From Candidatus Contendibacter sp. (GTDB lineage: Bacteria; Pseudomonadota; Gammaproteobacteria; Competibacterales; Competibacteraceae), in the NCBI GenBank assembly GCA_008933795.1, contig WBUJ01000013.1, positions 1 to 44,381 on the forward strand: 44,381 nucleotides of DNA, read 5' to 3'. Numbering within the stretch: position 1 is the stretch's first letter; each line of letters starts with the position of its first letter. This document shows, piece after piece, positions 103 through 44,343 of the stretch. The notes under the pieces were generated by a model, which was not told the origin of the DNA, did no database searches, and worked only from the letters and a program-made list of their open reading frames with translations. A program made the translations under genes and the position numbers.

Positions 103-110
103 CCTACGTC

Positions 111-138: not shown

Positions 139-183
139 GTTTTGCGGTGGAATCTTCACCATTTCCGAATCGCATCGGGTTCT

Positions 184-2312: not shown

Positions 2313-2317
2313 AGGGC

Positions 2318-6580: not shown

Positions 6581-6652
6581 CAGGGATTCCAATGCGGCAA
6601 GGGAAGGTTAAAGCGATGAATAGCTTAGCGCAAAAACCGACCGGTCGCCGCC

Positions 6653-6680
6653 CTTGAAATCGACCGGGTTGCCCCCATTT
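6653..6680 (+). promoter_or_regulatory. Sigma-32 (heat-shock) promoter of the hsp20 gene
   Basis: CTTGAAA at 6653-6659 and CCCCATTT at 6673-6680 are separated by 13 nt, matching the sigma-32 consensus CTTGAAA-N13-15-CCCCATNT at essentially every position. Transcription would begin near 6687, giving a ~55-nt leader before the small heat-shock gene. Confidence 0.88.
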
Positions 6681-6742
6681 GAAAACCAACCCGAAAAGGC
6701 GTTCCTGGAACGCCGCAACCCGAAATTCGAGGAGGTGCAACC

Positions 6743-7183
6743 ATGGCTCTGATGCGTTATGAACCCTTGAATCTGTTGAATCAGTTACAGCGGGAAGTTA
6801 ACCGCCTGTTCGAAACCAGCCGGTTTGGCGATGAGGAAACCGGGCATATGCTGGCGGACTGGATGCCTGCGGTGGACATCAGGGAAGAACCGAACCAGTT
6901 TGTGATCCATGCGGACCTGCCGGGCGTGGAGCTCAAGGATATCGAGGTCACGCTGGAGAATGGCGTGCTGACCCTGAAGGGCCAGCGGGCGAGCGAGAAG
7001 AAGGAGGAAACCGAGCAGTATCGGCGGGTCGAGCGGGTGCGCGGCACCTTCCTGCGGCGGTTCTCGTTGCCGGATGTGGCTGACGCCGACAAGGTGGCCG
7101 CCAAGTGCAAGGATGGCGTGCTGGAGGTGATCGTGCCGAAGCGCGAGGCGGCGCAGCCGCGCAGGATTACCGTTGAAGGTTGA
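6743..7183 (+). CDS. Small heat-shock protein, Hsp20 / alpha-crystallin family
   Basis: An ATP-independent cytosolic holdase that binds unfolding proteins during heat or other stress and passes them to DnaK/ClpB. The 146 residues have a short N-terminal arm (MRYEPLNLLNQLQREVNRLF), an alpha-crystallin domain from about residue 43 (MPAVDIREEPNQFVIHADLP opening strand, ENGVLTLKG, CKDGVLEVIVPK) and the C-terminal I-x-V anchor (RITVEG) used in oligomer assembly. Length is typical. GGAGGTG sits 5 nt before ATG, and a near-perfect sigma-32 promoter precedes it, so heat-shock control is directly visible. It appears to be monocistronic, with a hairpin starting 10 nt after the stop. Confidence 0.95.
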   Translation: MALMRYEPLNLLNQLQREVNRLFETSRFGDEETGHMLADWMPAVDIREEPNQFVIHADLPGVELKDIEVTLENGVLTLKGQRASEKKEETEQYRRVERVRGTFLRRFSLPDVADADKVAAKCKDGVLEVIVPKREAAQPRRITVEG

Positions 7184-7192
7184 TCGGGTCTC

Positions 7193-7223
7193 GCCGGAAC
7201 GCGACCGGGCGCCGCGTTCCGGC
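7193..7223 (+). terminator. Hairpin after hsp20, possible terminator without U-tract
   Basis: A perfect 11-bp GC-rich inverted repeat (GCCGGAACGCG / CGCGTTCCGGC) with a 9-nt loop starts 10 nt after the hsp20 stop. No T run follows, so it may pause polymerase or protect the mRNA 3' end rather than act as a full intrinsic terminator. Confidence 0.5.
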
Positions 7224-7360
7224 TGATTGAGTGCCGCCGCCGAGTATCGAAGGCTGGGGGTCGGATCGACACGGCTTCAGCAGCGAGACGGCGGCGGTGT
7301 CCATCGGGTCTACGGCCCTGGCAAAATCCGTGATGATCCACCTCGACGCATGCCCATGGG

Positions 7361-7390
7361 TTGACTACACTTGGCTGAAGCCCCAATAAA
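7361..7390 (+). promoter_or_regulatory. Candidate promoter of the parA-like gene
   Basis: TTGACT at 7361-7366 and AATAAA at 7385-7390 are 18 nt apart. Initiation would fall near 7397, on or just before the start codons at 7395 and 7407, suggesting a leaderless or near-leaderless transcript. Prediction only. Confidence 0.35.
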
Positions 7391-7394
7391 ACCC

Positions 7395-8171
7395 ATGGAA
7401 ACCACCATGCGCCGAGTCGTGTTCAATCAGAAAGGGGGGGTGGGTAAATCCACCATCGCGTGCAATCTGGCCGCTATCAGCGCCGCGCGCGGGCGGCGAA
7501 CCCTCCTTGTGGACTTGGACCCACAGGCGAATGCCTCCCGCTACCTGCTGGGCACCGCCCTGGACGAGCAGAAGAAAACCCTCGCCCATTTTTTCGATGA
7601 CATTCTGGCTTACAAACTGTTCGCCGACAAACCGGCTGCCTACGTTGTCGAGACCCGCTTCGCCAACCTCGGCGTTCTGCCCTCCGATCCCCGGCTCGAA
7701 GACCTGCAAATCAAGCTGGAGTCGCGCTACAAGATGTACAAACTGCGGGAGGCGCTGGAGACCTTCAAGGAGCTCGACGAGATTTTCATCGATACCCCGC
7801 CCGCGCTGAATTTTTACACCCGTTCGGCGCTGATCGCCGCTGATACCTGTCTGATCCCGTTCGATTGCGACGATTTCTCCCGCCGCGCCCTGTATACGTT
7901 GATGGACAGCGTGCGCGAAATCCAGGCCGACCACAATCGCGCGCTGCGGGTGGAAGGCATCGTGGTCAACCACTTTCAGGCCCGCGCCAATCTGCCGATG
8001 CGGCTGGTCGAGGAGCTGCGCGCCGAGGGGTTGCCGGTGCTGGAGGCGTTTCTGTCGGCCTCGATCAAGATCCGCGAATCGCACGCTCAGGCGTTGCCGA
8101 TGATCCACCTCGATCCCAAACACAAGCTGAGCCGGGAATTCGAGGCGCTTTACCGCCTGCTGGCCACCTGA
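7395..8171 (+). CDS. ParA/MinD-family ATPase (orphan, no ParB)
   Basis: A deviant-Walker ATPase of the ParA/Soj/MinD group, which dimerise with ATP and position DNA, protein clusters or organelles. Visible: KGGVGKST at residues 13-20, LLVDLDPQANAS (the DPQ box typical of ParA), and FIDTPPALNFYTRSAL for the Walker B/switch region. At 258 residues it lacks the N-terminal HTH of P1-type ParA. No ParB or centromere-like repeats lie next to it, and the chromosomal parAB context is absent, so its cargo is unknown. The start is uncertain: ATG 7395 and ATG 7407 are both in frame, TTG at 7371 less likely, and none has a good Shine-Dalgarno. The sirtuin gene begins 37 nt downstream and may be co-transcribed. 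Confidence 0.88.
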   Translation: METTMRRVVFNQKGGVGKSTIACNLAAISAARGRRTLLVDLDPQANASRYLLGTALDEQKKTLAHFFDDILAYKLFADKPAAYVVETRFANLGVLPSDPRLEDLQIKLESRYKMYKLREALETFKELDEIFIDTPPALNFYTRSALIAADTCLIPFDCDDFSRRALYTLMDSVREIQADHNRALRVEGIVVNHFQARANLPMRLVEELRAEGLPVLEAFLSASIKIRESHAQALPMIHLDPKHKLSREFEALYRLLAT

Positions 8172-8208
8172 TCCCGTCACTCGACCCCTGATGCAGCGAG
8201 GCTGCGCC

Positions 8209-8976
8209 ATGACCGACCCCGATTCGACCCTCGTCGCCCAAATCGTTGAAGAACTGCGTCGCGCCCGCCGGTTATTGTTCATCACCGGGGCCGGCATCTC
8301 CGCCGATTCCGGCCTGCCGACTTATCGTGGTATCGGCGGGTTGTACAACAATCAGACGACCGAGGAGAACTTCTCCATCGAGACCGCTTTGTCCGGGTCG
8401 ATGTTGGAAGCCAACCCGGCCATCACCTGGAAATACCTGCACCAGATCGAAAACTCCTGCCGGGGAGCGCGCTTCAACGATGCTCACGCCATCATCGCCG
8501 AGTGGCAGAACCAGTTTGACGTGTGCGTGCTGACTCAGAACATCGATGGTTTCCACCGCGACGCCGGCAGTCGTAACCTGATCGAGATTCACGGCGACAT
8601 CCACGATCTGTACTGCACCCGCTGTAACTACGCGACTACGGTCGCGGATTACAGCGAACTGGACCTGCCGCCCTCCTGCCCGCGCTGTCATGCCCTGGTG
8701 CGGCCGCGGGTGGTGCTGTTCGGCGAGGCGCTGCCGTCCCATGCCATCCAGCATTTGTACGCGGAACTGGATCGGGGCTTCGACTTGGTGTTCACCATCG
8801 GCACCACCAGCGTGTTTCCCTACATTGCCGGGCCGGTGGTGCAAGCCAGCCAGATGGGCATCCCCACGGTGGAGATCAATCCCACCGATACCAACGTCAC
8901 CCGGTTCGTAGACTACAAGCTGGCCACGGGGGCGGCGGCGAGCTTGCGGGCGATCCGGACAGCCTGTCAGGGATAG
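8209..8976 (+). CDS. Sirtuin, NAD-dependent protein deacylase (Sir2 family)
   Basis: Removes acyl groups from lysines while consuming NAD+, giving nicotinamide and O-acyl-ADP-ribose in the cytosol. All diagnostic elements are present: GAGISADSGLPTYRG (residues ~27-41) for NAD binding, TQNID (109-113), catalytic His128 in EIHGD, a zinc ribbon with Cys136/139/157/160 (CTRC and CPRC), and the GTTSVFP and EINPTDT nucleotide contacts. It lacks the Y-x-x-R pair that marks CobB/SIRT5 desuccinylases in the usual place, so acetyl-lysine is the likelier substrate. ATG at 8209 has GAGG 7 nt upstream, preferred over ATG 8191. It follows the ParA-like gene on the same strand. Confidence 0.93.
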   Translation: MTDPDSTLVAQIVEELRRARRLLFITGAGISADSGLPTYRGIGGLYNNQTTEENFSIETALSGSMLEANPAITWKYLHQIENSCRGARFNDAHAIIAEWQNQFDVCVLTQNIDGFHRDAGSRNLIEIHGDIHDLYCTRCNYATTVADYSELDLPPSCPRCHALVRPRVVLFGEALPSHAIQHLYAELDRGFDLVFTIGTTSVFPYIAGPVVQASQMGIPTVEINPTDTNVTRFVDYKLATGAAASLRAIRTACQG

Positions 8977-8981
8977 TTCGT

Positions 8982-9004
8982 GGCCGGAGGCGCTCCCTCT
9001 GGCC
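8982..9004. terminator. Hairpin between convergent sirtuin and yrdA genes
   Basis: A 9-bp stem with one G-U pair (GGCCGGAGG / CCTCTGGCC) and a 5-nt loop sits in the 54-nt gap between two converging genes. There is no T run on either side, so intrinsic termination is uncertain. Confidence 0.4.
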
Positions 9005-9030
9005 TCCTAATCAGGCGTCAGCGACCAATC

Positions 9031-9597
9031 CTACCTGCTTGAAGGGTCGTCCGTCCGGGGCAGGGTGGACGGCGAACGATGTCGCTCCTTCAGTCGCCGG
9101 TAGTTCTGGGCCGAGTATTCGAGAAACTCCAGTTCGCGGTCGTTCAGTAGGCGGACCTGTTTGACCGGGCTGCCGACGTACAGATAACCGCTTTCCAGAA
9201 CCTTGCTGGGCGGCACCACGCCGCCAGCGCCGATGGTCACCCGCGACCGCACCACCGCCTTGTCCATCACGATGGCGCCCATGCCGATCAGGCAGTAATC
9301 CTCGATGGTGCAGGCGTGCAGGATCACCCGGTGGCCGACCGTGACATCGTTGCCGATCACGGTCGGTTGGCCGCCCGGACAAAACCGGCTGTCGTGGGTA
9401 ACGTGAATGATGGTCCCATCCTGGATGCTGGTGCGCGCGCCGATGCGGATGCTTTGAATATCGCCGCGAATCACGCACAGCGGCCACACCGAACTGTCCT
9501 CCCCGATTTCGACATCACCGATTACCACAGCGGTGTTGTCCACATAAGCGGAAGGATGGATGCGGGGAGTCTGTTGCTCGAAGGGGCGGATCGGCAT
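9031..9597 (-). CDS. yrdA: Gamma-carbonic-anhydrase-like hexapeptide-repeat protein
   Basis: A left-handed beta-helix protein of the YrdA/PaaY/gamma-carbonic anhydrase group. The 188 residues show repeated hexapeptide turns (IGEDSSVWPLCVIRGD, IRIGARTSIQDGTIIHVTH, TVIGNDVTVGHRVILHACTI, LIGMGAIVMDKAVV), and the three histidines in IHVTH, VGHR and LHAC are placed as the trimer-interface zinc ligands of the family. Enzyme activity of YrdA-type proteins is unproven, so carbonic anhydrase function is a family inference. Start ATG 9597 matches the family N-terminus MPIRPF; the open frame extends further upstream without homology. The lipoprotein gene lies 22 nt upstream on the same strand. Confidence 0.9.
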   Translation of the reverse strand: MPIRPFEQQTPRIHPSAYVDNTAVVIGDVEIGEDSSVWPLCVIRGDIQSIRIGARTSIQDGTIIHVTHDSRFCPGGQPTVIGNDVTVGHRVILHACTIEDYCLIGMGAIVMDKAVVRSRVTIGAGGVVPPSKVLESGYLYVGSPVKQVRLLNDRELEFLEYSAQNYRRLKERHRSPSTLPRTDDPSSR

Positions 9598-9619
9598 GAT
9601 GGTTCTCGCGGTGAGGCAA

Positions 9620-10012
9620 TCAGCGGTCGTTCTGGAGCAGCCAGCCCTGCTCGGTTTTGTGGAAAGTGACCTTTTCGGTGCGATGGCGGCGTTCACCGGC
9701 CTGAAACTGGCCGTATTTGATGCCTAGTTCCACTAGGTCCAACCCGGCCAGCAACGGATCCTTACTGTCGCGCAGGTTCAGCGCCAGATCGGCCAGGCTT
9801 TTCTGGAACACCAGATCGTATTCCACCTCGGCGACGTAGACGTTCTGGCCCGGCTCGAAGCCGTTGGTTTTACGAAAGTTCTCGACGATGTAGAGGCTGC
9901 CGCCCTCCCGCAACAACCGCTCGTTGACTTGCCGCTCGATATTGCCATCGCTGGGCCGGTTGGCGCAGGCCGCCAGCAGCAGGATAAAAATTGTCAGGAA
10001 CAGGCGTTTCAT
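9620..10012 (-). CDS. Small predicted lipoprotein of unknown function
   Basis: A 130-residue protein beginning MKRLFLTIFILLLAACANRP, a type II signal peptide with lipobox LAAC, so it should be lipidated at the cysteine and anchored in the inner or outer membrane facing the periplasm. The mature part is charged and soluble and ends in a strand-rich section (ERRHRTEKVTFHKTEQGWLL) that could be an NTF2- or DUF4878-like alpha+beta fold; I do not recognise the family. ATG 10012 has GAGG 9 nt upstream; ATG 10021 is in frame but too close to that site. It lies between gor (17 nt upstream) and yrdA, all on the minus strand. Confidence 0.82.
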   Translation of the reverse strand: MKRLFLTIFILLLAACANRPSDGNIERQVNERLLREGGSLYIVENFRKTNGFEPGQNVYVAEVEYDLVFQKSLADLALNLRDSKDPLLAGLDLVELGIKYGQFQAGERRHRTEKVTFHKTEQGWLLQNDR

Positions 10013-10029: not shown

Positions 10030-11379
10030 TCAGCGCATCGTCACCAGTTCTTCGGCGCTGGTGGGGTGAATGGCGACCGTGTCATCGAAATCGCGCTTGG
10101 TCGCGCCCATGCGGATGGCGACCACGAAGCCTTGCAGCATCTCGTCCGCGCCCTCGCCGATGAGATGGCAGCCGACGATTTTTTCCTCGGGGCCGACGCA
10201 GACCAGCTTCATCACCGTGGGCGGTTGGCGGGTGGTGAAGGCGTGATACATCGAGCGAAACCGAGTTTGATAAATCCGCACCGCGTCCCCGTATTGCCGC
10301 CGCGCGTCCTCCTCGGTCAGGCCGACCGCGCCGATGGGCGGATGGCTGAAGACCACCGTGGGGATATTCTCGTAGGGCAGATGGCGTTCCGGCTGGTTGC
10401 CAAACAGTCGGTCGGCCAGCCGGCGACCGGCGGCGATGGCTACCGGGGTCAGGTGGAAGCGCTCGGTCACGTCGCCGATGGCGTAAACGCCGGGGATGTT
10501 GGTATTCTGGTAAGGATCGGTGGGAATGGAACCGTCCGGATTCAGCGTCGCGCCCGCCGCCGCCAGTTCGAGCGCATCGGTGTTGGGCTCGCGGCCGATG
10601 GCCCACAGCACGGCGTTCACGTTCGGTGCGTGGCCTGCGCCTTCGCAATGCAGGCTGAGCGCGCCGCTGGCCAGCCGCGCCACAGCCCGAACCTGAGTGC
10701 GGGCCAACACATGAATGCCGTCCTCGCGCAGCCGTTCCATCAATTGCTCGCGCAGCATGGCGTCGAACGACCGCAAGACCTGATCCTTACGAACCAGCAG
10801 GGTGACCTCGGCCCCCAGCGCTTGCAGCATGCCCGCCAACTCCACCGCGATATAACCGCTGCCCACGATGGCGACCCGCGCCGGGCAGGCGTTTAGCTCG
10901 AAAAAGCCGTTCGAGGTGATGCCGAATTGGGCGCCGGGCAGGTTGGGAACCTGGGGCCGGCTACCGGTGGCGATGACGATATGGTCGGCGCTGTAGCGTT
11001 CGCCGCCAACCGCCAGGGTGTGGGCATCCACGAATCGGGCGAAGCCGCGAATCAGCGTGACTCCGGCTTTGGCTAAATGGCCCAGATACCACTCGTTGAG
11101 GTCGCTCACGAAGCGGTCGCGCGCCATTTTCAGTTTTTGCCAGTCAAAGCCGAAGTAATCCAGCCGGAAACCATAACCCGGAGCATCATCGAGCGCATGG
11201 GCAAGATGGGCGGCATGCCACATCACCTTCTTGGGCACGCAACCCACGTTGACGCAAGTACCGCCGAGTCGGGCGGCTTCGATCAGGGCGCAGCGGGCGC
11301 CGTATCGGGCCGCCCGTTCCACCACCGACAGGCCGCCGCTGCCGCCGCCGATGGCGATGAGATCGTAATGCTGGGCCAT
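10030..11379 (-). CDS. gor: Glutathione-disulfide reductase
   Basis: A cytosolic FAD flavoenzyme that reduces glutathione disulfide with NADPH. The 449-residue length matches E. coli Gor (450). The N-terminal FAD-binding [18 protein letters not shown] is followed by the redox-active disulfide Cys42/Cys47 in [28 protein letters not shown] forms the second dinucleotide fold, YAIGDVTE the second FAD contact, and the C-terminal [13 protein letters not shown] carries the catalytic His-Glu pair. The full-length family hallmark VMWHAAH supports Gor over lipoamide or mercuric reductases. AGGAGG lies just before ATG 11379. It appears to head a minus-strand unit gor / lipoprotein / yrdA. Confidence 0.96.
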
Positions 11380-12383: not shown

Positions 12384-14894
12384 TTACGCCAGCGGCATCT
12401 TCGGGAGTTGCTTCAGCTTCCAGATTTCGGTGTTGTACTCCAGCATGGTGCGGTCGGTGGAGAACTTGCCGCTGGTGGCGGTGTTGAGGATGCTCATCCG
12501 CGTCCAGCGCTCCTGATCCTGATAGGCCTGCGCCGCCAGGCTCTGGGCGTCGATGAAGCCGCGGAAATCAGCGATCGTCAGCCACGGATCGTGCGGGCTG
12601 GTCAGCGAGTGCAGGATCGAATCGAAGATGCCCTGCTCGAACTGGTTGAAGTGGGCGCTTTCCAGCAGGTGCATCACCCGGGCGATGTCGGAATCGCTGT
12701 GGATGATCGCCGCCGGATCGTAATTCTGCCGCCGCGCCTCAACTTCCGGGGCGGTCAGCCCAAACAGGAAGAAGTTTTCGTCGCCGCATTCCTCGCGGAT
12801 TTCGATGTTGGCGCCGTCCAGGGTGCCGATGGTGACCGCGCCGTTCATCATGAATTTCATGTTGCCGGTGCCCGAGGCTTCCTTGCCGGCGGTCGAGATC
12901 TGTTCGGACAGGTCGGTGCCGGGACAGATCACTTCCATCGCCGAGACCCGGTAGTTGGGCAGGAAGGCGATCTTCAGCTTGTCGCCGATGTCGGGATCGT
13001 TGTTGATCACCCGGGCGACATTGTTGGTCAGCTTGATGATCAGCTTGGCCATGTAATAGCCCGGCGCCGCCTTGCCGCCGATCAGCACGCAGCGTGGAGT
13101 CCAGTTGGCGGTATCGCCGCGCTTGATGCGGTCGTACAGGTGAACGACGTGCAGGATGTTGAGCAACTGGCGCTTGTACTCGTGAATGCGCTTGACCTGG
13201 ACGTCGAACAGGGCGCTGGTGTTGAAGGTCACGCCGCAATCGGCTTCGACCAGAGTGGCCAGCCGCACCTTGTTGTCCTGCTTGATCTGCCGCCACTTCG
13301 CCCGGAACTTCGCATCGTCGGCGTGGGGAATCAGCTTGCGCAACTCGTCCAGTTGGGTGACCCAGCCCGGTCCGATGGTGTCGGTGATCAGCGCGTTCAG
13401 GCCGGGATTGCAATTCGCCAGCCAGCGGCGCTGGGTGACGCCGTTGGTCTTGTTGTTGAACTTCTCCGGCCATAGTTCGTAAAAATCGCGGAACAGGCCC
13501 TGTTTGAGTAGTTCCGAGTGCAGTTCGGCGACGCCGTTGACCGAGATGCTGCCGACGATGGCCAGATAGGCCATGCGGACCTGCTGCTCGTACCCTTCCT
13601 CAATCAGCGACATGCGGCGCTGGCGGTCGATGTCGCCGGGCCAGCGGCGCGCGACCTCGGCCAGGAAGCGGGCGTTGATCTCGTAGATGATGTCCAGAAT
13701 GCGCGGCAGCAGTTGCCGGAACAACCGCACCGGCCAGCGCTCCAGGGCTTCCGGCAACAGCGTATGGTTGGTGTAGGCCATCACCTGGCTGGTGATCTCC
13801 CAAGCCCGATCCCACACAAGTCCGTGTTCGTCCAGCAGGATCCGCATCAATTCCGCCACCCCGATGGTGGGATGGGTATCGTTGAGCTGGAAGCAGTTTT
13901 TCGCGGCGAACTGGCTAAAGTCCTCGCCATGCACGCGCACCCACTGCCGGATCACGTCCTGCAGGCTGGCGGAGGCCAGGAAGTATTGCTGGCGCAGCCG
14001 CAGTTCCTTGCCGCTCTCGGTGGCGTCGTTGGGATAGAGCACCATCGTGATGTTTTCCGCCATGTTCTTGGCGCCGACGGCCTCGGTATAACTGCCGGAG
14101 TTGAAATCCTCAAAATCGAACTCGTCGGTGGCGGCCGCCGACCACAGCCGCAGGGTGTTGACGGTACCATTCTGGTAGCCGGGAATGGGCACGTCGTAAG
14201 GCACCGCCAGGACGTCGTGGGTGTCCAGCCAGCGCCAGCCCATTTCGCCATCGGCTTTCGGATAGCCCTCGGTGCGGCCGCCGAACTTGATTCGTTGCGT
14301 GTACTCGGGCCGCTCCAACTCCCACAGGTTGCCGCTGCGCAGCCAGTGGTCCGGCTCCTCGATCTGATAACCGTTTTCGATCCGCTGGCGAAACATGCCG
14401 TAGGCGTAGCGGATGCCATAGCCGACCACCGGCAGCCGCAGGGTGGCGCAACTGTCCATGAAACAGGCCGCTAGCCGGCCCAGACCGCCGTTGCCCAGAC
14501 CGGCGTCGTTCTCGCACTCGGCCAGTTCCTCCAACGTCAGCCCCATTTCATACAGCGCCTTGTTGGCCGGCTCGGCGACGCCCAGATTGAGCATGGCGTT
14601 GCTCAGCGCCCGGCCCATCAGGAATTCCATGGACAGATAGTAGGCGCGGCGGACGCCGCCGTCCGCCTCGTAAGCATAGCGGGTGTTTTTCCAGCGCTCC
14701 CACAGCCGATCGCGCAGGGTCAGCACCAGCGCCTCGTACATGTAGTAGGCATATTTGGTATGCCGGTCGCGGCCTAGCGTGTGACTGAAGTAGTGGCGGA
14801 AATCGGCGGCGATGCTCTTGGCGTCCATGCCCAGGGGTGGCAGTTCCGTCAGCCAGGAGGCGGGCGTGCTTCTTTCCAGGAGTTTGATCGTCAT
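12384..14894 (-). CDS. glgP: Glycogen / maltodextrin phosphorylase
   Basis: A PLP enzyme that releases glucose-1-phosphate from the non-reducing ends of alpha-1,4-glucans, mobilising glycogen in the cytosol. At 836 residues it is close to GlgP (815) and MalP (797). The GT35 family signature EASGTGNMKFMMNG near residue 680 carries the PLP-binding lysine. Other conserved stretches are NDAGLGNGGLGRLAACF, LNDTHPTIGVAELMR and VQVKRIHEYKRQLLN. ATG 14894 gives the family-like N-terminus; the frame is open for 18 more codons. No other glg gene is in the window, so it seems to be transcribed alone from its own promoter and terminator. glgP versus malP cannot be separated from sequence alone. Confidence 0.95.
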   Translation of the reverse strand: MTIKLLERSTPASWLTELPPLGMDAKSIAADFRHYFSHTLGRDRHTKYAYYMYEALVLTLRDRLWERWKNTRYAYEADGGVRRAYYLSMEFLMGRALSNAMLNLGVAEPANKALYEMGLTLEELAECENDAGLGNGGLGRLAACFMDSCATLRLPVVGYGIRYAYGMFRQRIENGYQIEEPDHWLRSGNLWELERPEYTQRIKFGGRTEGYPKADGEMGWRWLDTHDVLAVPYDVPIPGYQNGTVNTLRLWSAAATDEFDFEDFNSGSYTEAVGAKNMAENITMVLYPNDATESGKELRLRQQYFLASASLQDVIRQWVRVHGEDFSQFAAKNCFQLNDTHPTIGVAELMRILLDEHGLVWDRAWEITSQVMAYTNHTLLPEALERWPVRLFRQLLPRILDIIYEINARFLAEVARRWPGDIDRQRRMSLIEEGYEQQVRMAYLAIVGSISVNGVAELHSELLKQGLFRDFYELWPEKFNNKTNGVTQRRWLANCNPGLNALITDTIGPGWVTQLDELRKLIPHADDAKFRAKWRQIKQDNKVRLATLVEADCGVTFNTSALFDVQVKRIHEYKRQLLNILHVVHLYDRIKRGDTANWTPRCVLIGGKAAPGYYMAKLIIKLTNNVARVINNDPDIGDKLKIAFLPNYRVSAMEVICPGTDLSEQISTAGKEASGTGNMKFMMNGAVTIGTLDGANIEIREECGDENFFLFGLTAPEVEARRQNYDPAAIIHSDSDIARVMHLLESAHFNQFEQGIFDSILHSLTSPHDPWLTIADFRGFIDAQSLAAQAYQDQERWTRMSILNTATSGKFSTDRTMLEYNTEIWKLKQLPKMPLA

Positions 14895-36264: not shown

Positions 36265-36897
36265 ATGAATACAGAACTCACCCTCGAAGATATTCGGGGG
36301 TTGTTTGCGGACGTTGCTCTCCGCTTTCAGGAAACCGACCGCAAGTTTCAGGAAACCGACCGCAAGTTTCAGGAAACCGACCGCAAGTTTGAGAAGACGG
36401 ATCGGTTAATCGATAAACTGTCGCGGGAAAACAGTCAGAAAATCCGTGAACTCGGCCAGCAAATCGGCGGACTGGGTAACAAATTTGGCAGTTTCACCGA
36501 GGGGTTGGCCTTACCGTCCATGGAAAAAATCCTGCGCCAGCGCTTTGGCGTGGACACCATCAGCCCTAGCGTCCGGATTTCCAGGAAAGGCAAACATCTG
36601 GAAATCGATGTGCTCGCATATGCCAATGGCGAAATCAATACGGCTTACGTCGTCGAGGTGAAAAGCCATCTGCGCGAAGAGAACATTCAGCAATTGCTAG
36701 AGATTCTGGAACACTTCGCCGAGTGGTTCCCGGAACACCGGGATAAAAAACTGTATGGCATTCTGGCGGCGGTGGATATCCCCGAATCCTTGCGCCTGCG
36801 GATTCTGGAGCAGGGTCTCTATCTGGCCCAGATTCACGAGGACCTGTTCGAGCTGCAAGTTCCCGATGATTTCCGGCCCCGGCGTTTCGATCAGTAG
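36265..36897 (+). CDS. DUF3782-like protein: coiled-coil stalk plus PD-(D/E)XK nuclease fold
   Basis: A 210-residue protein of unknown role. After a short N-terminus come four heptads (residues 21-48), three identical FQETDRK and one FEKTDRL, predicting a coiled-coil stalk. The C-terminal half has a PD-(D/E)XK-like core: HLEIDVLAYANGE with D115, then VVEVKSHL with E131 and K133, followed by a helix. This is the architecture of the DUF3782 group, abundant in filamentous and Competibacter-like gammaproteobacteria and cyanobacteria, whose function is not known. The catalytic residues look intact. It starts 18 nt after rpiA and may share its transcript. Confidence 0.8.
   Translation: MNTELTLEDIRGLFADVALRFQETDRKFQETDRKFQETDRKFEKTDRLIDKLSRENSQKIRELGQQIGGLGNKFGSFTEGLALPSMEKILRQRFGVDTISPSVRISRKGKHLEIDVLAYANGEINTAYVVEVKSHLREENIQQLLEILEHFAEWFPEHRDKKLYGILAAVDIPESLRLRILEQGLYLAQIHEDLFELQVPDDFRPRRFDQ
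36325..36387 (+). repeat. Three perfect 21-bp tandem repeats inside the DUF3782-like gene
   Basis: The 21-bp unit TTTCAGGAAACCGACCGCAAG occurs three times in a row without a mismatch (36325-36345, 36346-36366, 36367-36387) and encodes exactly one heptad, FQETDRK. A fourth, degenerate unit follows. Confidence 0.95.
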
Positions 36898-36966: not shown

Positions 36967-38145
36967 TTAGAAATCCACTCGCGTGCCGATGGAGACGCCG
37001 TTTTGATCACCGTAGAAAATGGTGCCTGGATCGGACGCCAGAATAGCGCCATCGGCGGTTATGCTGGGTTGCTGAGCATCGCGGCCGACGTATTCAATCC
37101 ATAGCCGGGTCCGCTTGCTCAGGTTGTACTGATAGCCCAAGACGTAGTTCTGGATGGGGTCGGCTCCTGGAAGCCCGGTGTCCAATTGACCGTAGGCAGC
37201 GCTGATCATATTGTTGCCGAAGGTGTAGGAACCGGTCAGGTAGGCGGCCCAAGGCGTGTCGAATCCATCGAAGGCTTGTGCGAAGAAAGGCTCGTAGATC
37301 CCCCATTGATTCATGTCGCCTTGCTCGTAGGTCAAGCCAATGCTGAACGCTCCAGTCTGATAACCCAGGCCAATAGCCCACTGATCCCGATCGAGGTCAA
37401 TGATCGGAATGCCCGCGCTATCATAGAGCGTGCTTCCATTCAGGGCGAGATAGGTGGCGCCGACGAAGAACGGTCCATGGGTGTATTTCAGGGCGACCGT
37501 CCACTCATCAATCCCGTCCGACCACCCGTTCGCCTCGTTAGTGGGAAAAGTCCCTATATTATCGTCGGTAATGCTGCTCGCCATGACCAGCATGGCCGAG
37601 GCGCTGAATCCACCAAAATCCGGCGTCGAATAGTAAACGCTGCTCGGCAGGCGCTCCAAGGTTCCCGCCGATTGCGACTTGCCGACGTCCGAACCGGAAA
37701 TACGGATGAAACCGTTATTGGAGCCTCCCAGCCATACCGACGGGCCAAACGTCATGCCGCTGTTGAAGATATCGTTGATGCCCACGACTTCGTAGTAGGG
37801 CGTGGTCTGCGTGCCGACCGTCAACTGACCGAAACCGCCCTTCAGGCCGACGAACTTGGGCCGATTGCCCTGAAGATTACCGCCATCGGTAACATCCACG
37901 CCAAACTCGTATTGGTAGACGGCGCTCAGACCGCCACCCAGATCCTCGGAGCCCATGACGCCGAGCCGGGAGGCATTGTTGACCACGTCCCAATTGGCGT
38001 CGCCTTCAAAGTCATTGAACAGGTTGTTATCATCGTTATAGTCGATGGATACCCGCGCCGACCCATACAGGATGGTATCGGCCTGCGCGGCTAGGGGAGC
38101 GGCAAGGGCGGCGGCAACCGCCAAGGCAAGAACGGACTTTTTCAT
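36967..38145 (-). CDS. Outer-membrane porin (general Gram-negative type), copy 1
   Basis: A trimeric beta-barrel channel of the outer membrane. The 392 residues begin with signal peptide MKKSVLALAVAAALAAPLAA, cut after AQA, then DTILYGSARVSIDY, the usual first strand. Markers of the family: VNNASRLGVMGSEDLGGGLS, YQYEFGVDVTDGG, FVGLKGGFGQLTVGTQ, and a C-terminal aromatic residue (GTRVDF) for BAM assembly. Alternating strands fill the rest. It is about half identical to the next porin, with most divergence in the loops. GGGAA precedes ATG 38145 by 8 nt. A ~100-nt leader with a strong hairpin and a promoter almost the same as that of copy 2 are visible. Confidence 0.93.
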   Translation of the reverse strand: MKKSVLALAVAAALAAPLAAQADTILYGSARVSIDYNDDNNLFNDFEGDANWDVVNNASRLGVMGSEDLGGGLSAVYQYEFGVDVTDGGNLQGNRPKFVGLKGGFGQLTVGTQTTPYYEVVGINDIFNSGMTFGPSVWLGGSNNGFIRISGSDVGKSQSAGTLERLPSSVYYSTPDFGGFSASAMLVMASSITDDNIGTFPTNEANGWSDGIDEWTVALKYTHGPFFVGATYLALNGSTLYDSAGIPIIDLDRDQWAIGLGYQTGAFSIGLTYEQGDMNQWGIYEPFFAQAFDGFDTPWAAYLTGSYTFGNNMISAAYGQLDTGLPGADPIQNYVLGYQYNLSKRTRLWIEYVGRDAQQPSITADGAILASDPGTIFYGDQNGVSIGTRVDF

Positions 38146-38193
38146 GGCATGATTCCCAAGTTGTGGCGCATGTTCAACCAAGTTCAAAATTTT

Positions 38194-38226
38194 CTTTCCA
38201 ATCAAACAGATGGGCTGATTGGAAAG
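38194..38226 (-). repeat. Perfect 11-bp inverted repeat in the leader of porin 1
   Basis: CTTTCCAATCA (38194-38204) and TGATTGGAAAG (38216-38226) are perfectly complementary around an 11-nt loop, within the predicted 5' leader of the porin 1 mRNA. No T run follows in the transcript direction, so it looks like an RNA structure or a protein site rather than a terminator. Confidence 0.75.
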
Positions 38227-38251
38227 CAATCTCAAACCAATGTTGGAATAA

Positions 38252-38280
38252 TTTATATACTCGTCGCGGTAAAAAAGCAA
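38252..38280 (-). promoter_or_regulatory. Promoter of porin 1
   Basis: On the minus strand TTGCTT (38275-38280) and TATAAA (38252-38257) have a 17-nt spacer; A/T-rich sequence upstream could be an UP element. Transcription would start near 38245. Confidence 0.65.
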
Positions 38281-38353
38281 CTGTTTTTTTATAAAAAATA
38301 CAACTTTTGGTTTCAACGCAACGAATCCAATAAAACCAAGGATGCCGGAGCGG

Positions 38354-38382
38354 AAAAAAACGGACGCCCGTGGGCGTCCGTT
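38354..38382 (-). terminator. Intrinsic terminator of the second porin
   Basis: On the minus strand a 10-bp perfect stem AACGGACGCC / GGCGTCCGTT with 4-nt loop is followed by a run of T (the A run 38354-38360). It lies 27 nt after the porin 2 stop. Confidence 0.92.
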
Positions 38383-38409
38383 GGTTTCGAGCGGATTCAG
38401 GAGTCCGAA

Positions 38410-39558
38410 TCAGAAGTCGACGCGGGTACCGATGGAGACCGTTTGCCGGCTGCCGACCAGATCGGTGTCAATATCTTGGCCGAGGTACTCGACCCAGACC
38501 CGGGTGCGCTTGCTGAAGTTGTACTGGTAGCCCAGAACCCAGTTGTTGATGTCGCTTTGCTCGAGAATGTTTCCATTGGCGAGGAAGAGCAGCTCATCAT
38601 CGGGGGACATGAAGCCATAAGCGGCCCGGATGATGTTGTTGCCAAAGGTGTACTGACCGGTCAGGTAATAGTTGTCGGTCTCGCCGAAGTACTGGGTGTT
38701 GACGTCACCGCGTTCCCAGTTGAAGGTAACGGCGAAGGGGCCCGAATTGTAGCCGAACGCCAAGCCATACTGCTCGCCATCATAGGCGGGCCGGGTGAAG
38801 AACTCATCGAAGCTGGGGCCTTCGAGCGCCATGTAGGTTCCACCCGCGAAGAATGGGCCATTCTTGTAGGACATCGAGATGCCCCACATGTCGATGTCGT
38901 CGGAAAGATTGGCGGGAACCAGATTGGTCGTGCCGGAGACGCGAGTGTCGCCGCACGCCGTGCCATAGCGAAGTTCCGAAGGCACCTGCGGATCGGTGGG
39001 CGGGCACTGGCCGTTCATCACCAACATCGCCTGGGCGCTGAAGCCGCTCCAGTTGGGCGTGGTGTAGATCAGGCTGTTATCCATGCGCGTGCCGAAGGTG
39101 TTGCCCAGATAGATGCTGTCGCTACTGAACACCTTGCTGCTGTTGAAGATATCAGCAATGCCCATCACGTTGTAGTAGGCAGTCCATTGGGTGCCGACGG
39201 TCAACGAACCCCAGCCTGAACCCTTCAAACCGACCCACTTCGGGCGGTTGCTGTTAAGATTGCCGCCGTCGGTGACGTCTACGCCGAACTCGTACTGATA
39301 GATGGCGCTCAGACCGCCGCCCAAGTCTTCCTCGCCCCGCACGCCCAGGCGGGACGCATTGTTAAAGACATCCCACGAATCGGTGCCAGGGGTAACGCGC
39401 ACCAGCGAACCATTGGGCGCTAAAGCATAGTTGGCGTTGAAATCGCTGTAGTCGACCGACACCCGGGCGGAACCGTACAGGGTCGTATCCGCGTAGGCGG
39501 CGGAACCAAAACCAACCAGCGCAGCGGCAACGGCCAGCGCAAGAGCAGACTTTTTCAT
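38410..39558 (-). CDS. Outer-membrane porin (general Gram-negative type), copy 2
   Basis: A paralogue of the neighbouring porin, 382 residues. Signal peptide MKKSALALAVAAALVGFGSA with cleavage after AYA, first strand DTTLYGSARVSVDY, FNNASRLGVRGEEDLGGGLS, YQYEFGVDVTDGGNL, WVGLKGSGWGSLTVGTQ, and C-terminal SIGTRVDF. A long insertion (GQCPPTDPQVPSELRYGTAC, with two cysteines that could form a disulfide in an extracellular loop) is absent in copy 1. AGGAG lies 7 nt before ATG 39558. Own promoter and terminator show it is a separate unit from copy 1. Substrate unknown. Confidence 0.94.
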   Translation of the reverse strand: MKKSALALAVAAALVGFGSAAYADTTLYGSARVSVDYSDFNANYALAPNGSLVRVTPGTDSWDVFNNASRLGVRGEEDLGGGLSAIYQYEFGVDVTDGGNLNSNRPKWVGLKGSGWGSLTVGTQWTAYYNVMGIADIFNSSKVFSSDSIYLGNTFGTRMDNSLIYTTPNWSGFSAQAMLVMNGQCPPTDPQVPSELRYGTACGDTRVSGTTNLVPANLSDDIDMWGISMSYKNGPFFAGGTYMALEGPSFDEFFTRPAYDGEQYGLAFGYNSGPFAVTFNWERGDVNTQYFGETDNYYLTGQYTFGNNIIRAAYGFMSPDDELLFLANGNILEQSDINNWVLGYQYNFSKRTRVWVEYLGQDIDTDLVGSRQTVSIGTRVDF

Positions 39559-39623
39559 GACTGAACTCCTAGGTTTGTGTTGTATGTACACAACAAAAGG
39601 GCATTCGCAACTCATGGAGTAAA

Positions 39624-40052: not shown

Positions 40053-40844
40053 TCAATCGGGGTCGGGACCGCGCGGATCGCCCAGCAAATACTGCCCGGT
40101 CAGCTTGTGAAACGCGCTCGAGGTTCGTGGACCGGCTAGACCGTCCACCTTCAGGTAAATTCCGGGCAGGGTGTTCAAAAACCGTTGCAGCGCTTCCGCC
40201 CAGGGCGAGGCTTCCGTCTCGGCGTAGCGCAGCAGACCAGGGGCAGATTCGCCATGGGCGGCGAACTCGATCAAATCCCGTTCCGCCAGCCGTCGCAGCA
40301 ACACCGCCACGCCGCAGCGCTGGGCGACGGCGGTTTCGTTCCAGACGTCGTCGGCGACGTATTTGCCTTGGTGGTAATGGGTCGAATAGTTCCACAGGTA
40401 GGGCGAAGGCACTTCGGGATGATGCAGCCGGTAACCCCAGCCGCCGTGGCCCTCCAGCTTGAACAGCACGCCGGCGATGCTCCAGTCCGACCACCGATCG
40501 AAATGATAGAGGTGCAAGGCGTCGGCGGCGCTGTCCTCCCAGGCGAACGGCGGTTCGCCCGCGACCGGCCGCCCGTCCGGCAGGTGACGGGTGCGTTCGG
40601 TCAGCGGGTCGCCGTTGTGCAAATGCACGGTGAAATCGCGGCCCGTATCCGCCTCATGCAATACCGCCACCACGAACCAGGGCACGTCCAACCGCCGGCC
40701 CACGGTCTGGTAACGATCCCGATCCGCCATGACGGCTTCTACCCATTCCTCCACCTCGGCGGCCCGTTCCGGGCGAATCGCGCAGGCGGCGAACAGCCGT
40801 TGATATTCGTGCTGCAACTCTGGGGTCAACGCGATGCGGCTCAC
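40053..40844 (-). CDS. Putative peptidoglycan-hydrolase-like protein with peptidoglycan-binding-like C-terminus
   Basis: A 263-residue protein without a signal peptide. The central part (VPWFVVAVLHEADTGRDFTV, LHNGDPLTERTRHLP, WSIAGVLFKLEGHGGWGYR, YLWNYSTHYHQGKYVADDVW) resembles lysozyme-like proteins found in phages and bacteria next to peptidoglycan-binding domains; the glutamate in LHEADTG is placed like a lysozyme catalytic acid. The C-terminal segment (FLNTLPGIYLKVDGLAGPRT, SSAFHKLTGQ) has the VDGxxGxxT pattern of PG_binding_1-type domains. Start is GTG 40844 with GAGG 5 nt upstream. Lack of an export signal suggests holin-dependent or intracellular use, possibly prophage-derived. Identification is moderate. 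Confidence 0.62.
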   Translation of the reverse strand: MSRIALTPELQHEYQRLFAACAIRPERAAEVEEWVEAVMADRDRYQTVGRRLDVPWFVVAVLHEADTGRDFTVHLHNGDPLTERTRHLPDGRPVAGEPPFAWEDSAADALHLYHFDRWSDWSIAGVLFKLEGHGGWGYRLHHPEVPSPYLWNYSTHYHQGKYVADDVWNETAVAQRCGVAVLLRRLAERDLIEFAAHGESAPGLLRYAETEASPWAEALQRFLNTLPGIYLKVDGLAGPRTSSAFHKLTGQYLLGDPRGPDPD

Positions 40845-40926: not shown

Positions 40927-42225
40927 ATGATACCAGCCTCAATCCCCCTGCTCGCGCCGGCTGCGCCGGATACGCCCATCGCTTGGCGGGATGGACAACC
41001 CGTCAGCCGCGCGATCTTTCTGCGCCATGTCGCCAGCGTTGCCCGTTGCCTGCCGGCCGCGCGCTTCATCCTCAATCTGTGCGAGGATCGCTACCGATTC
41101 CTGGTGGCGTTCGCCGCCGTGGGCGCGAACGGCCAGACCAATCTGCTGCCGTCCAGCCGCGCCAGCCTGCACCTGCGCCAGTTGGCCGAGGATTATCCCG
41201 ACAGCGGCCAACTGATGGACCGCGATATCGACGCTGGATTGGCGCCAGCCGCGCCGGAGGACCATCCCGGATTCGCCGTTCCCAAACTGCCGAGCGAACA
41301 CATGATGGCCATCGCCTTCACCTCCGGCAGCACTGGTCGCGCCAAACCCAATCCCAAAACCTGGGGCGAGTTGGTCAGCGGCGCAGCGCAAGCGCGGCAA
41401 CGCTTCGGTTTCGCGCCGGGCATGACCCTCGTAGCGACCGTGCCGCCGCAGCACATGTACGGTCTAGAAACCTCGATCATGGCGCCGCTCGCCAGCGGCG
41501 CCAGCGTTCACAGCGGGCGACCGTTCTTTCCGGCCGACGTGCGCGCCGCGCTGGAGGCCGCGCCGGCGCCGCGCGTGTTGGTGACCACGCCGGTTCATCT
41601 CCAGGCCTGCGTCCAGGCGGGCTTGCGCTGGCCAAAAACCCGCTTCCTGATTTCGGCGACCGCGCCCCTGTCCCCCGCGCTCGCCGCTCAGGCCGAGGCC
41701 GCGTTCGCCGCGCCGGTGCTGGAAATCTACGGCTGCACCGAGGCCGGCTCCATCGCCAGCCGCCGCACCCTGGACGGCGATCGCTGGCGGCTGTACGACG
41801 GTTTCCAGTTACACGACGGTTCCCTGTCCGGCGCTCATCTGCCGGAACCGGTCGCCCTGAACGACCTGATTGAGGAATGCGGCGAGGCGGAATTCAGGTT
41901 GCTGGGCCGCTGCGAGGATCTGGTCAACATCGCCGGCAAACGCACCTCGCTGGGGTATCTCAACCATCAACTCAACGCCATCGAAGGGGTGGCGGAGGGT
42001 GTTTTCGCGATGCCAGACGAGGCGGGAACCGAGGTTCGGCGGCTGTTGGCCGTGGTGGTCGCGCCTGGGTTGGATGAACGACAATTGCTCGCCGCCTTGG
42101 CCGAACGTCTCGATCCGGTGTTTTTACCCCGGCCCCTCGTCAAGGTGGACGCTCTGCCGCGCAATGATACCGGCAAGGTGACGCGCGCCGCCCTGCTGGC
42201 CCTGATTGCCGCAATCCGCCCATGA
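40927..42225 (+). CDS. AMP-dependent acyl/aryl ligase of an aryl-polyene-like locus
   Basis: An adenylate-forming enzyme of 432 residues, shorter than acetyl-CoA synthetases, as in the ligases of aryl polyene and xanthomonadin clusters (ApeH / XanA2-like) that activate hydroxybenzoate starters for an acyl carrier protein. Motifs: P-loop FTSGSTGRAKPNPKTW, core EIYGCTEAGSIASR, LLGRCEDLVNIAGKRTSLGY and the C-terminal lysine in LPRNDTGKVTRAAL. The linker before the P-loop is short. ATG 40927 is preferred to TTG 40918; no clear Shine-Dalgarno. It overlaps the dehydratase gene by ATGA. Substrate assignment rests on the neighbouring chorismatase and dehydratase. Confidence 0.8.
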   Translation: MIPASIPLLAPAAPDTPIAWRDGQPVSRAIFLRHVASVARCLPAARFILNLCEDRYRFLVAFAAVGANGQTNLLPSSRASLHLRQLAEDYPDSGQLMDRDIDAGLAPAAPEDHPGFAVPKLPSEHMMAIAFTSGSTGRAKPNPKTWGELVSGAAQARQRFGFAPGMTLVATVPPQHMYGLETSIMAPLASGASVHSGRPFFPADVRAALEAAPAPRVLVTTPVHLQACVQAGLRWPKTRFLISATAPLSPALAAQAEAAFAAPVLEIYGCTEAGSIASRRTLDGDRWRLYDGFQLHDGSLSGAHLPEPVALNDLIEECGEAEFRLLGRCEDLVNIAGKRTSLGYLNHQLNAIEGVAEGVFAMPDEAGTEVRRLLAVVVAPGLDERQLLAALAERLDPVFLPRPLVKVDALPRNDTGKVTRAALLALIAAIRP

Positions 42226-42578
42226 GTCCCGAATCGCCACAACGCACCGCCGCGCCCTATGATCCGCCCCCGAATCCCGCCAGATGCCAGGCGATCGCCG
42301 CCGATCATCCCAGTCTGGCGGGGCATTTCCCCGGCAATCCGATCGTGCCGGGTGTGGTGATTCTGGAACAAGTGATGCAAGCGTTCGCAGCATGGCGGCC
42401 AGAGCATCAGGTGATTGGGATGCCAGTCGTGAAGTTCCTCGCGCCGCTACGGCCGGAACAGCCGTTCGCCATCCGGTTTGCGGAGTCCGGCGGGTGCGGG
42501 GTTCGGTTTGAATGCGTCCGGGACGACGGTCGATCGCTGGCGCAGGGTTGCCTGACGGTCGCCCATGCCGATGGTTAA
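42222..42578 (+). CDS. Hotdog-fold 3-hydroxyacyl-ACP dehydratase (FabZ/ApeI-like)
   Basis: A 118-residue thioester dehydratase that removes water from 3-hydroxyacyl carrier proteins. The core GHFPGNPIVPGVVILEQVMQ has catalytic His35 and, as in FabZ, Glu49 rather than the Asp of FabA. The remainder (VKFLAPLRPEQPFAIRF) is the second hotdog strand set. Small dehydratases directly after an AMP-ligase are typical of aryl polyene clusters, where they create the conjugated double bonds. Housekeeping FabZ normally sits with lpxD/lpxA, which is not so here. The stop interlocks with that of the converging methyltransferase (TTAA, 42575-42578). Confidence 0.85.
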   Translation: MSPESPQRTAAPYDPPPNPARCQAIAADHPSLAGHFPGNPIVPGVVILEQVMQAFAAWRPEHQVIGMPVVKFLAPLRPEQPFAIRFAESGGCGVRFECVRDDGRSLAQGCLTVAHADG

Positions 42579-43345
42579 TCGCCCGCCGGCTCTGCCCCAC
42601 TCTGCTTGCGGCCAAAATAAGCCCGGAACAGGTCCAGTTCGATGTGACAACCGACTTCGGCGAAGCCGGCGGCGCGGATGGCCTCAAGGATGGTTTCGGG
42701 TGGGACGCAGTTCTCGATAGTGTCCCAGTAATAATGCATCAGGGTTTGAAGGTCTCGCTGGCCGGTGGTCAGCCAGCCGAGTAGCGGCACCAGTCGCCCC
42801 AGATAGAACTTGAGCAGGGCGCGCTTGACTGGATGGGCGGGTCGGGTGATTTCCAGGATCAGCAGTGCGCCGCCCGGCCGCAACGCGCGGTGAAATTCGC
42901 GGAAGGTGACGTTGAGATCGGCGATGTGGCGCAGCGCGTAGCCCATGCTGACCAGATCGCAACAGGCGTCGGCGACCGGCAACTGCTCCATCAGGCCCTG
43001 AATCAGCGGAATACCCAACAGCCGGCGCACTTCGGCCAGCATTCCGGCGCTGATGTCCAGCCCGATGACCGCCTGCGGGTCGCCGGTGATGGCCAGCGCC
43101 TGCCGGGCCACCAGCCCGGTGCCGATGGCGACATCGAGCACGGTCAGGCCGGGGCGCAATCCCACCCGCAGCAGCGCCCGGCGGCGGTACCAGCCGCCGG
43201 AGCCGAACGACAGCAGCCGGTTGATGTGATCGTAGTGGCGGGCGGTGCGGTCGAACAGCCCGCGCACGAAGGTCGGCCGTTGCGCCAGATCGGGGTAGTA
43301 GTCCGGCAGCGTTGGATGCGGTTCGAGTGGTTGGTCGGGTTTCAA
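42575..43345 (-). CDS. UbiE/MenG-like SAM methyltransferase
   Basis: A 256-residue class I methyltransferase of the UbiE/COQ5 type. FVRGLFDRTARHYDHINRLL and SFGSGGWYRR give the UbiE-like start; motif I is VLDVAIGTGLVARQAL; GLDISAGML, YALRHIADLNVTFREFHRAL and LRPGGALLILEITRPAHP follow. Ring C-methylation of a quinone or aryl polyene head group is inferred from its neighbours. It is not clearly the housekeeping UbiE, whose motif I is usually DLAGGTGD. Start TTG 43345 overlaps the chorismatase stop (TTGA); the frame is open from 43423. It follows the chorismatase gene as one unit. Confidence 0.82.
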   Translation of the reverse strand: MKPDQPLEPHPTLPDYYPDLAQRPTFVRGLFDRTARHYDHINRLLSFGSGGWYRRRALLRVGLRPGLTVLDVAIGTGLVARQALAITGDPQAVIGLDISAGMLAEVRRLLGIPLIQGLMEQLPVADACCDLVSMGYALRHIADLNVTFREFHRALRPGGALLILEITRPAHPVKRALLKFYLGRLVPLLGWLTTGQRDLQTLMHYYWDTIENCVPPETILEAIRAAGFAEVGCHIELDLFRAYFGRKQSGAEPAGD

Positions 43346-44343
43346 GGAGCGTGGTCCTGACGGTGGCGGGTAGCGGCGCCAACCGCCAGCCCTTCGATTT
43401 CGATTAGCAAATCCTGGCGGCAAATGTCGGCGCGCAGGAAGAGCAACGGGATATCCGGCCCGAACGCCTGGGCGATCCGTTCGCGCACCGGCGTCGGATC
43501 GAGGTCTGGCCGGGCGTACACTCGAAACAGCACCGGGCGCGGTGGCGTCGGCGTCCGTCGGTTGGCCTGGGCGATCAGCGCGGCCAGATTCAACAGGGTT
43601 TCGTCCAGTTGCGCCATCAGGTCAAGGTGCTGGCTGGCGTGACCGACCACGCTGGCGGTGCCGGAAATATAGAGATGACAATCCCGCTCCCCCCAGTGCT
43701 TGAGGATGGCCCGCGAGAACGAAGGGCTTTGCGGGCCGTACTGGGTCGGATAATGGAAGGCGCTGACCTGGCGAGGATTTTCGATTTGCACGCCGGGGTC
43801 CCGACCGGCCAGCGCGTACAACCGCAGGCCAGGTGCGCGGGTTCCAATGGCGGAAGCCGCCGGCAGATGGGTTTCCAGTTCCGCCCGTTCCGCCCGCAGG
43901 GCCGAGTGCCGGCCCACGCAAAACGCGCGATACCGCTCCAGACCGCCGGTTTCCTGGTTGATGGCGGGGAAATAATTCCAAATCCGCAGCAGATGCGGAT
44001 AGCCCCGGGCGCGCGCCGCCGCGAACAGCCGTCGATAGGCGGCGGCGGTCAGGGGACTCAGGGCGTCCGGGGCCGATTCGTCCAGATGAAGATGCAGGAA
44101 CAGGGCGTCGCCACTGTCCGCGTAATGCACGCCGTCCAGAACGCCGGTTTGCGCAGGCCGCGCGCCGAGCCAAACCTCGGCGGTCGCGCCGTTGCCCAGT
44201 TCCGGCAAGGGAATGACGCAAACCCGCTGGTCGGCGGGGGGAGCGGCCGGCGAGCCAAACCGGATCAGCGCCAGCAGGCGGTCATCATTCAACCAAGCGT
44301 CCGCTGGCGCGGCGTCGCAGTGAAAAACGGTGAAGGGCGTCAT
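43342..44343 (-). CDS. Chorismatase (XanB2 / FkbO / Hyg5-like)
   Basis: A 333-residue enzyme of the chorismatase family, which cuts chorismate to pyruvate plus 3-hydroxybenzoate, 4-hydroxybenzoate or dihydroxycyclohexadiene-carboxylate. The sequence shows the family blocks LLRIWNYFPAINQETGGLER, YRAFCVGRHSAL and the RidA-fold C-terminal half with HLYISGTASVVGHASQHLDL and LDETLLNLAALI. Length is close to XanB2 (~340). In Xanthomonas XanB2 feeds both xanthomonadin and ubiquinone synthesis. The position beside an AMP-ligase and a dehydratase supports a hydroxybenzoate-starter role. Which product is made cannot be told from the sequence by eye. ATG 44343 lies 38 nt from the window edge, so more pigment genes may continue to the right. 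Confidence 0.87.
   Translation of the reverse strand: MTPFTVFHCDAAPADAWLNDDRLLALIRFGSPAAPPADQRVCVIPLPELGNGATAEVWLGARPAQTGVLDGVHYADSGDALFLHLHLDESAPDALSPLTAAAYRRLFAAARARGYPHLLRIWNYFPAINQETGGLERYRAFCVGRHSALRAERAELETHLPAASAIGTRAPGLRLYALAGRDPGVQIENPRQVSAFHYPTQYGPQSPSFSRAILKHWGERDCHLYISGTASVVGHASQHLDLMAQLDETLLNLAALIAQANRRTPTPPRPVLFRVYARPDLDPTPVRERIAQAFGPDIPLLFLRADICRQDLLIEIEGLAVGAATRHRQDHAP

What the first reader, a model, noticed from the sequence alone, without database searches (positions are those of the whole stretch)
40927..44343. Edge of an aryl-polyene / xanthomonadin-like pigment locus
AMP-ligase and FabZ-like dehydratase (plus strand) converge on UbiE-like methyltransferase and XanB2-like chorismatase (minus strand). 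Established: aryl polyenes and xanthomonadin start from hydroxybenzoates made by chorismatase, activated by a ligase and extended with dehydratases. Carrier proteins, ketosynthases and ketoreductase should lie to the right. The methyltransferase inside it may give a modified head group.
Basis: partly seen in the sequence, partly recalled or inferred. Interest (0 to 1): 0.6.

Follow-up and report, generated by a model that had tools for sequence, protein, structure and literature searches.

The report
Split xanthomonadin-like pigment gene cluster

Summary
The window is an entire contig (C225) of a Candidatus Competibacteraceae genome near Contendobacter, so it ends where the assembly cuts the cluster. 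It holds an AMP-ligase, a FabZ-like dehydratase, a UbiE-like methyltransferase and a FkbO/Hyg5/XanB2-family chorismatase at the stated coordinates. The missing genes (ACP, acyltransferase, second dehydratase, LolA-like carrier, MMPL exporter, ketosynthase, CLF-like partner, ketoreductase, glycosyltransferase) lie on contig C95 of the same genome. In two Contendobacter genomes all are contiguous and in the same order. The chorismatase keeps the catalytic Glu and has the A/G/C residues seen in nearly all pigment-cluster homologues, not the G/A/A of FkbO. The genome has separate ubiC and ubiE, so the two window genes look dedicated to the pigment. No tryptophan-halogenase and no DarB were found, so a non-brominated, non-dialkylresorcinol xanthomonadin-like pigment is predicted. 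The methyltransferase forms a clade apart from UbiE and accompanies chorismatases in 30 of 58 loci, always on the same strand; it is a candidate for the head-group methyltransferase, reported as unknown in Lysobacter. New member of a known kind; modest interest.

The parts
40927..42225 (+). AMP-ligase (ArcT/ApeH-like), predicted to activate 3-hydroxybenzoate and load it on the ACP
   Evidence: Pfam AMP-binding 1.9e-24, motifs TSGSTG..K, YGCTE, C-terminal GK. 50-53% identical to the ligase between ACP and dehydratase in Aromatoleum and Thiobacillus clusters. Present in 8/8 chorismatase-positive and 0/6 chorismatase-negative Competibacteraceae tested.
42222..42578 (+). Short FabZ-like (ApeI/ArcS-type) dehydratase, ATG overlapping the ligase stop by 4 nt
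   Evidence: FabA-like 4.5e-7; the FabZ-like stretch GHFPGNPIVPGVVILE is present; PDB 6qsr (119 aa) at E 0.003. Lies next to the ligase in Contendobacter, Aromatoleum, Thiobacillus and Thioalkalivibrio.
42575..43345 (-). UbiE-like SAM methyltransferase, predicted head-group methyltransferase; TTG start overlaps the chorismatase stop (TTGA)
   Evidence: Ubie_methyltran 4.8e-28 but below every UbiE curated cut-off in NCBIfam. 35% to the genome's own UbiE. Clade of 31 rows (30 loci plus this one) separate from UbiE, all co-directional with the chorismatase.
43342..44343 (-). XanB2-type chorismatase, predicted 3-hydroxybenzoate (and possibly 4-hydroxybenzoate) synthase
   Evidence: TIGR04444 1.9e-66; Hyg5 structure 5ag3 3.8e-46. 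A165, G228, C308 and E315 at Hyg5 positions 173, 240, 327, 334.

Best explanation
This is the starter-unit half of a xanthomonadin-like aryl polyene pigment cluster, cut in two by an assembly break just upstream of the chorismatase. Proposed pathway: the chorismatase turns chorismate into 3-hydroxybenzoate; the AMP-ligase adenylates it and loads it on the ACP (contig C95); KS plus CLF-like partner, ketoreductase and the two dehydratases extend it iteratively to a conjugated aryl polyene; the UbiE-like methyltransferase methylates the aryl head group, most likely the 3-hydroxyl; the acyltransferase, glycosyltransferase, LolA-like protein and MMPL exporter attach the polyene to a lipid and place it in the outer membrane as an antioxidant pigment. 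Gene content and synteny are shown here. Enzyme reactions are inferred from characterised homologues (Azoarcus ArcB and ArcT, PMC3949708; Lysobacter cluster, PMC3691225; APE of E. coli, PMC8253772). The methylation position and the product are inferred only.
For: C95 matches Contendobacter L014 over 1-9916 at 85-87% apart from one missing gene, and its end lies about 50 bp, in L014 coordinates, from where the window begins. C95 genes match the Contendobacter and Competibacter proteins at 80-96% with Pfam support: ketoacyl-synthase, Ketoacyl-synt_2, KR/SDR, MMPL, LolA_3, Lip_A_acyltrans, PP-binding; the ACP Ser site and the KS CSSS motif are intact. NCBIfam's flexirubin reductase FlxB is among the best KR matches, below its cut-off. 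AMP-ligase and chorismatase co-occur 8/8 versus 0/6. Chorismatase residues agree with the pigment-cluster homologues. The genome has separate ubiC and a UbiE above cut-off.
Against: The C95-C225 junction has no sequence overlap and is inferred from synteny. The second dehydratase matches ApeP-like only weakly (6.8e-4, under the gathering score). Only one ACP was found, where E. coli APE has two. Product chemistry cannot be read from chorismatase sequence alone (PMC3949708). No expression or pigment data for this organism turned up in what I searched.
Confidence: 0.92

Rival explanations
1. The chorismatase and UbiE-like methyltransferase are quinone genes that merely sit beside a pigment cluster; in Xanthomonas XanB2 also feeds ubiquinone.
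For: The methyltransferase belongs to the UbiE superfamily, and XanB2 supplies 4-HBA for coenzyme Q in Xanthomonas (PMC3949708).
Against: The genome has its own UbiC-type chorismate lyase and a UbiE above the curated cut-off, in a different place. The window methyltransferase falls below all UbiE cut-offs and in a separate clade linked to chorismatases. The AMP-ligase of the pigment starter step co-occurs with the chorismatase.
Confidence: 0.04
2. The pigment is a hybrid such as arcuflavin (polyene esterified to a dialkylresorcinol) or a brominated xanthomonadin.
For: Similar chorismatase/ligase clusters make arcuflavin in Azoarcus and brominated xanthomonadins in Xanthomonas (PMC3949708).
Against: No Trp_halogenase match in the 99.97%-complete genome. 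Only two KAS III proteins: one on C294, the contig that also carries the best KS match, presumably FabH, and one scoring 33 bits against the 450-bit StlD/DarB cut-off.
Confidence: 0.05
3. The cluster is decayed or incomplete in this strain and makes no pigment.
For: This genome lacks the polysaccharide-deacetylase gene that most Contendobacter and Competibacter relatives have between acyltransferase and ACP, and several relatives in the genus lack the chorismatase altogether.
Against: The other reading frames are open and the motifs checked are intact. L012, a near relative, also lacks the deacetylase and is otherwise intact over the region held.
Confidence: 0.05

Closest known systems
Arcuflavin clusters of Azoarcus sp. 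BH72 (arcA-X; PMC3949708)
   Same: XanB2-type chorismatase, AMP-ligase, two dehydratases, KS plus N-terminal-KS protein, KR, acyltransferase, glycosyltransferase, LolA, exporter, ACP, an annotated methyltransferase (arcM).
   Different: No halogenase or DarB found here. Here the starter genes sit together beside the ACP; in Azoarcus the parts lie at two unlinked loci. No clear homologue of the window methyltransferase was found in related Aromatoleum/Azoarcus genomes (best about 31%); ArcM itself was not available for comparison.
Xanthomonadin cluster of Xanthomonas and the Lysobacter enzymogenes yellow locus (PMC3691225)
   Same: Type II PKS with KS and an unusual CLF-like half protein, ACP, KR, two DH, AT, chorismatase (XanB2/ORF5), exporters; Lysobacter also lacks a halogenase.
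   Different: The Lysobacter authors found no methyltransferase gene in the cluster; here one is coupled to the chorismatase by overlapping stop and start.
APE clusters of E. coli CFT073 / Xenorhabdus (ApeA-R; PMC8253772)
   Same: ApeH ligase, ApeI/ApeP dehydratases, ApeO/ApeC KS pair, ApeQ KR, LolA-like, RND/MMPL exporter and acyltransferase logic.
   Different: Those start from 4-HBA made by UbiC and carry no chorismatase; the methyltransferase there is ApeB.

Membership tests
Aryl polyene / xanthomonadin-like biosynthetic gene cluster | Ketosynthase with CSSS active site plus adjacent CLF-like partner | tested here: met
   C95 6810-8006 (CSSS at 164) and the Ketoacyl-synt_2 protein next to it
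Aryl polyene / xanthomonadin-like biosynthetic gene cluster | Dedicated ACP | tested here: met
   C95 13090-13359, PP-binding 2.3e-9, DSID motif
Aryl polyene / xanthomonadin-like biosynthetic gene cluster | Ketoreductase and dehydratase(s) | tested here: met
   KR C95 5312-6031; dehydratases at window 42222 and at C95 about 10904-11350; the ApeP-like match of the second is weak
Aryl polyene / xanthomonadin-like biosynthetic gene cluster | Benzoate-activating AMP-ligase | tested here: met
   window 40927-42225, orthologous by identity and context; substrate not assayed
Aryl polyene / xanthomonadin-like biosynthetic gene cluster | Acyltransferase, LolA-like protein, MMPL exporter | tested here: met
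   C95 8011-13043
Aryl polyene / xanthomonadin-like biosynthetic gene cluster | Produces an aryl polyene | not testable with these tools
   needs pigment extraction and mass spectrometry
XanB2-type chorismatase | Family fold, catalytic Glu, and residues distinguishing it from the FkbO type | tested here: met
   E315; A165/G228/C308 as in nearly all homologues aligned, against G/A/A in FkbO 4bps and G/G/C in Hyg5 5ag3
XanB2-type chorismatase | Makes 3-HBA and 4-HBA | not testable with these tools
   needs an enzyme assay; sequence does not decide (PMC3949708)
Brominated xanthomonadin | Halogenase gene | tested here: not met
   no Trp_halogenase in the genome
Arcuflavin/flexirubin (dialkylresorcinol hybrid) | DarB gene | tested here: not met
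   two KAS III proteins only; StlD/DarB model 33 bits against cut-off 450 for the one not in the C294 fatty-acid locus
UbiE (ubiquinone/menaquinone C-methyltransferase) | Score above curated UbiE cut-off | tested here: not met
   best 136 bits against cut-off 216; the genome's real UbiE scores 412 against 378

The most novel reading that the evidence does not exclude
The chorismatase-linked, UbiE-like methyltransferase clade (Competibacteraceae, Thiobacillus, Thioalkalivibrio) is the dedicated head-group methyltransferase of xanthomonadin-like pigments, a step whose enzyme was reported as unknown in Lysobacter, and it was recruited from quinone methyltransferases.
Probability: 0.5. Interest if true: 0.4.

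Novelty: new member of a known kind. Interest (0 to 1): 0.25.

Why it matters
It places a complete xanthomonadin-like aryl polyene pathway in a patchy set of Competibacteraceae, the glycogen-accumulating bacteria of wastewater plants, for which the literature I could search names biosynthetic clusters only in general terms. It also gives a concrete candidate gene family for the head-group methylation step. The pigment itself is of a well-known kind with an accepted antioxidant role.

Tried and rejected
An exact overlap between the ends of C95 and C225 was looked for and not found. A quinone role was considered and rejected because ubiC and ubiE are elsewhere. Halogenase and DarB searches were negative. 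Promoter and terminator scans gave no more than chance. A homologue of the window methyltransferase near the Aromatoleum ligase was looked for and not seen. The peptidoglycan-binding-like gene at 40053-40844 was considered as an ArcL counterpart, but it matches only Competibacteraceae neighbours and is left out. Structure prediction was judged unnecessary.

Full report
What was checked. The ligase and dehydratase form a plus-strand pair with a 4-nt ATGA overlap. The chorismatase and methyltransferase form a minus-strand pair with a 4-nt TTGA overlap. The two pairs converge with overlapping stop codons (TTAA, 42575-42578).

Where the window comes from. The window is the whole of contig C225 (44,381 bp) of a 4.38 Mb, 334-contig genome, 99.97% complete. 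The closest chorismatase relatives are Candidatus Competibacteraceae and Contendobacter MAGs at 80-84% identity. The window therefore ends at an assembly break, not at a cluster edge.

The rest of the cluster. In Contendobacter L014 and L015 the region beyond the chorismatase carries, on one strand, an ACP, a polysaccharide deacetylase, an acyltransferase, a DUF218 protein, a dehydratase, a LolA-like protein, an MMPL exporter, a ketosynthase, a CLF-like half ketosynthase, a ketoreductase and a glycosyltransferase. In the window's own genome these lie on contig C95 (13,494 bp) in the same order at 80-96% protein identity, apart from the deacetylase, which is missing. Pfam agrees, and the KS CSSS, KR YxxxK and ACP DSID motifs are intact. 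C95 ends, and C225 begins, within the ACP-chorismatase intergenic region of L014, about 50 bp apart. Adjacency of the two contigs is thus strongly supported by synteny but not directly shown.

The starter-unit enzymes. The chorismatase aligns with the Hyg5 and FkbO structures. It has Ala165, Gly228 and Cys308 where Hyg5 has Gly173, Gly240 and Cys327, and FkbO has Gly, Ala and Ala; the catalytic Glu334 is Glu315 (residue roles from PMC7170507). Nearly all other aligned homologues, including those beside pigment genes in Thiobacillus, Azoarcus and Aromatoleum, share the A/G/C pattern. A hydroxybenzoate product is therefore likely and an FkbO-type hydrolysis unlikely, although sequence alone does not fix the product (PMC3949708). 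The ligase is 50-53% identical to ligases that lie with ACP, dehydratase, acyltransferase, LolA and MMPL genes in Aromatoleum, Thiobacillus and Thioalkalivibrio. Azoarcus ArcT, the characterised counterpart, adenylates 3-HBA (PMC3949708). Among Competibacteraceae, eight of eight chorismatase-positive genomes tested have the ligase and six of six chorismatase-negative ones do not. In some of these genera the ligase is on another contig, so this module moves.

The methyltransferase. It scores below every curated UbiE cut-off. The genome's true UbiE is elsewhere and scores above its cut-off. In a tree, the window protein and those from 30 of the 58 chorismatase loci form one group, separated from UbiE by a fully supported branch; all 30 are on the same strand as the chorismatase, mostly within 2.5 kb. 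The tree tool warned of long branches, so only the separation is claimed, not the branching order inside. Xanthomonadin head groups are usually O-methylated, and the polyene half of arcuflavin takes a methyl from methionine (PMC3949708). The Lysobacter study called the responsible methyltransferase unknown (PMC3691225). This clade is a plausible candidate. Whether it acts on oxygen or on ring carbon is not shown; UbiE itself is a C-methyltransferase (general knowledge).

Predicted product. No Trp_halogenase and no DarB-like protein were found. The prediction is a non-brominated, non-resorcinol, methylated 3-hydroxyphenyl polyene, lipid-linked in the outer membrane. UbiC is present, so unlike in Xanthomonas the chorismatase is not needed for ubiquinone.

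Verdict. The system is a new member of a known kind. The papers I could search mention Competibacter biosynthetic clusters only in general (PMC9765116); subscription journals were mostly not covered, so an earlier description cannot be ruled out.

Noticed in passing
contig C95 (L078) 13043-13090, compared with L014 8501-9421: A polysaccharide-deacetylase gene present between acyltransferase and ACP in most Contendobacter and Competibacter relatives is cleanly absent in this genome and in its near relative L012.
   Followed up: partly
36325-36390: Exact 21-bp tandem repeat (3.1 copies) encoding QETDRKF units in a 210-aa protein; the homologue in L015 has more units, so copy number varies between relatives.
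   Followed up: no
36967-39615: Two tandem, related porin-like genes on the minus strand, also found in tandem beside the ligase gene in Contendobacter L014 and L015.
   Followed up: no
40053-40844: Conserved 263-aa protein without a Pfam or NCBIfam match, ending in a peptidoglycan-binding-like stretch; it stays next to the ligase gene even where that module lies on another contig (L138).
   Followed up: partly
L097 (relative G020, contig C2): A more distant chorismatase (44%) with one in-frame TGA in a Competibacteraceae genome, without the neighbouring methyltransferase.
   Followed up: no
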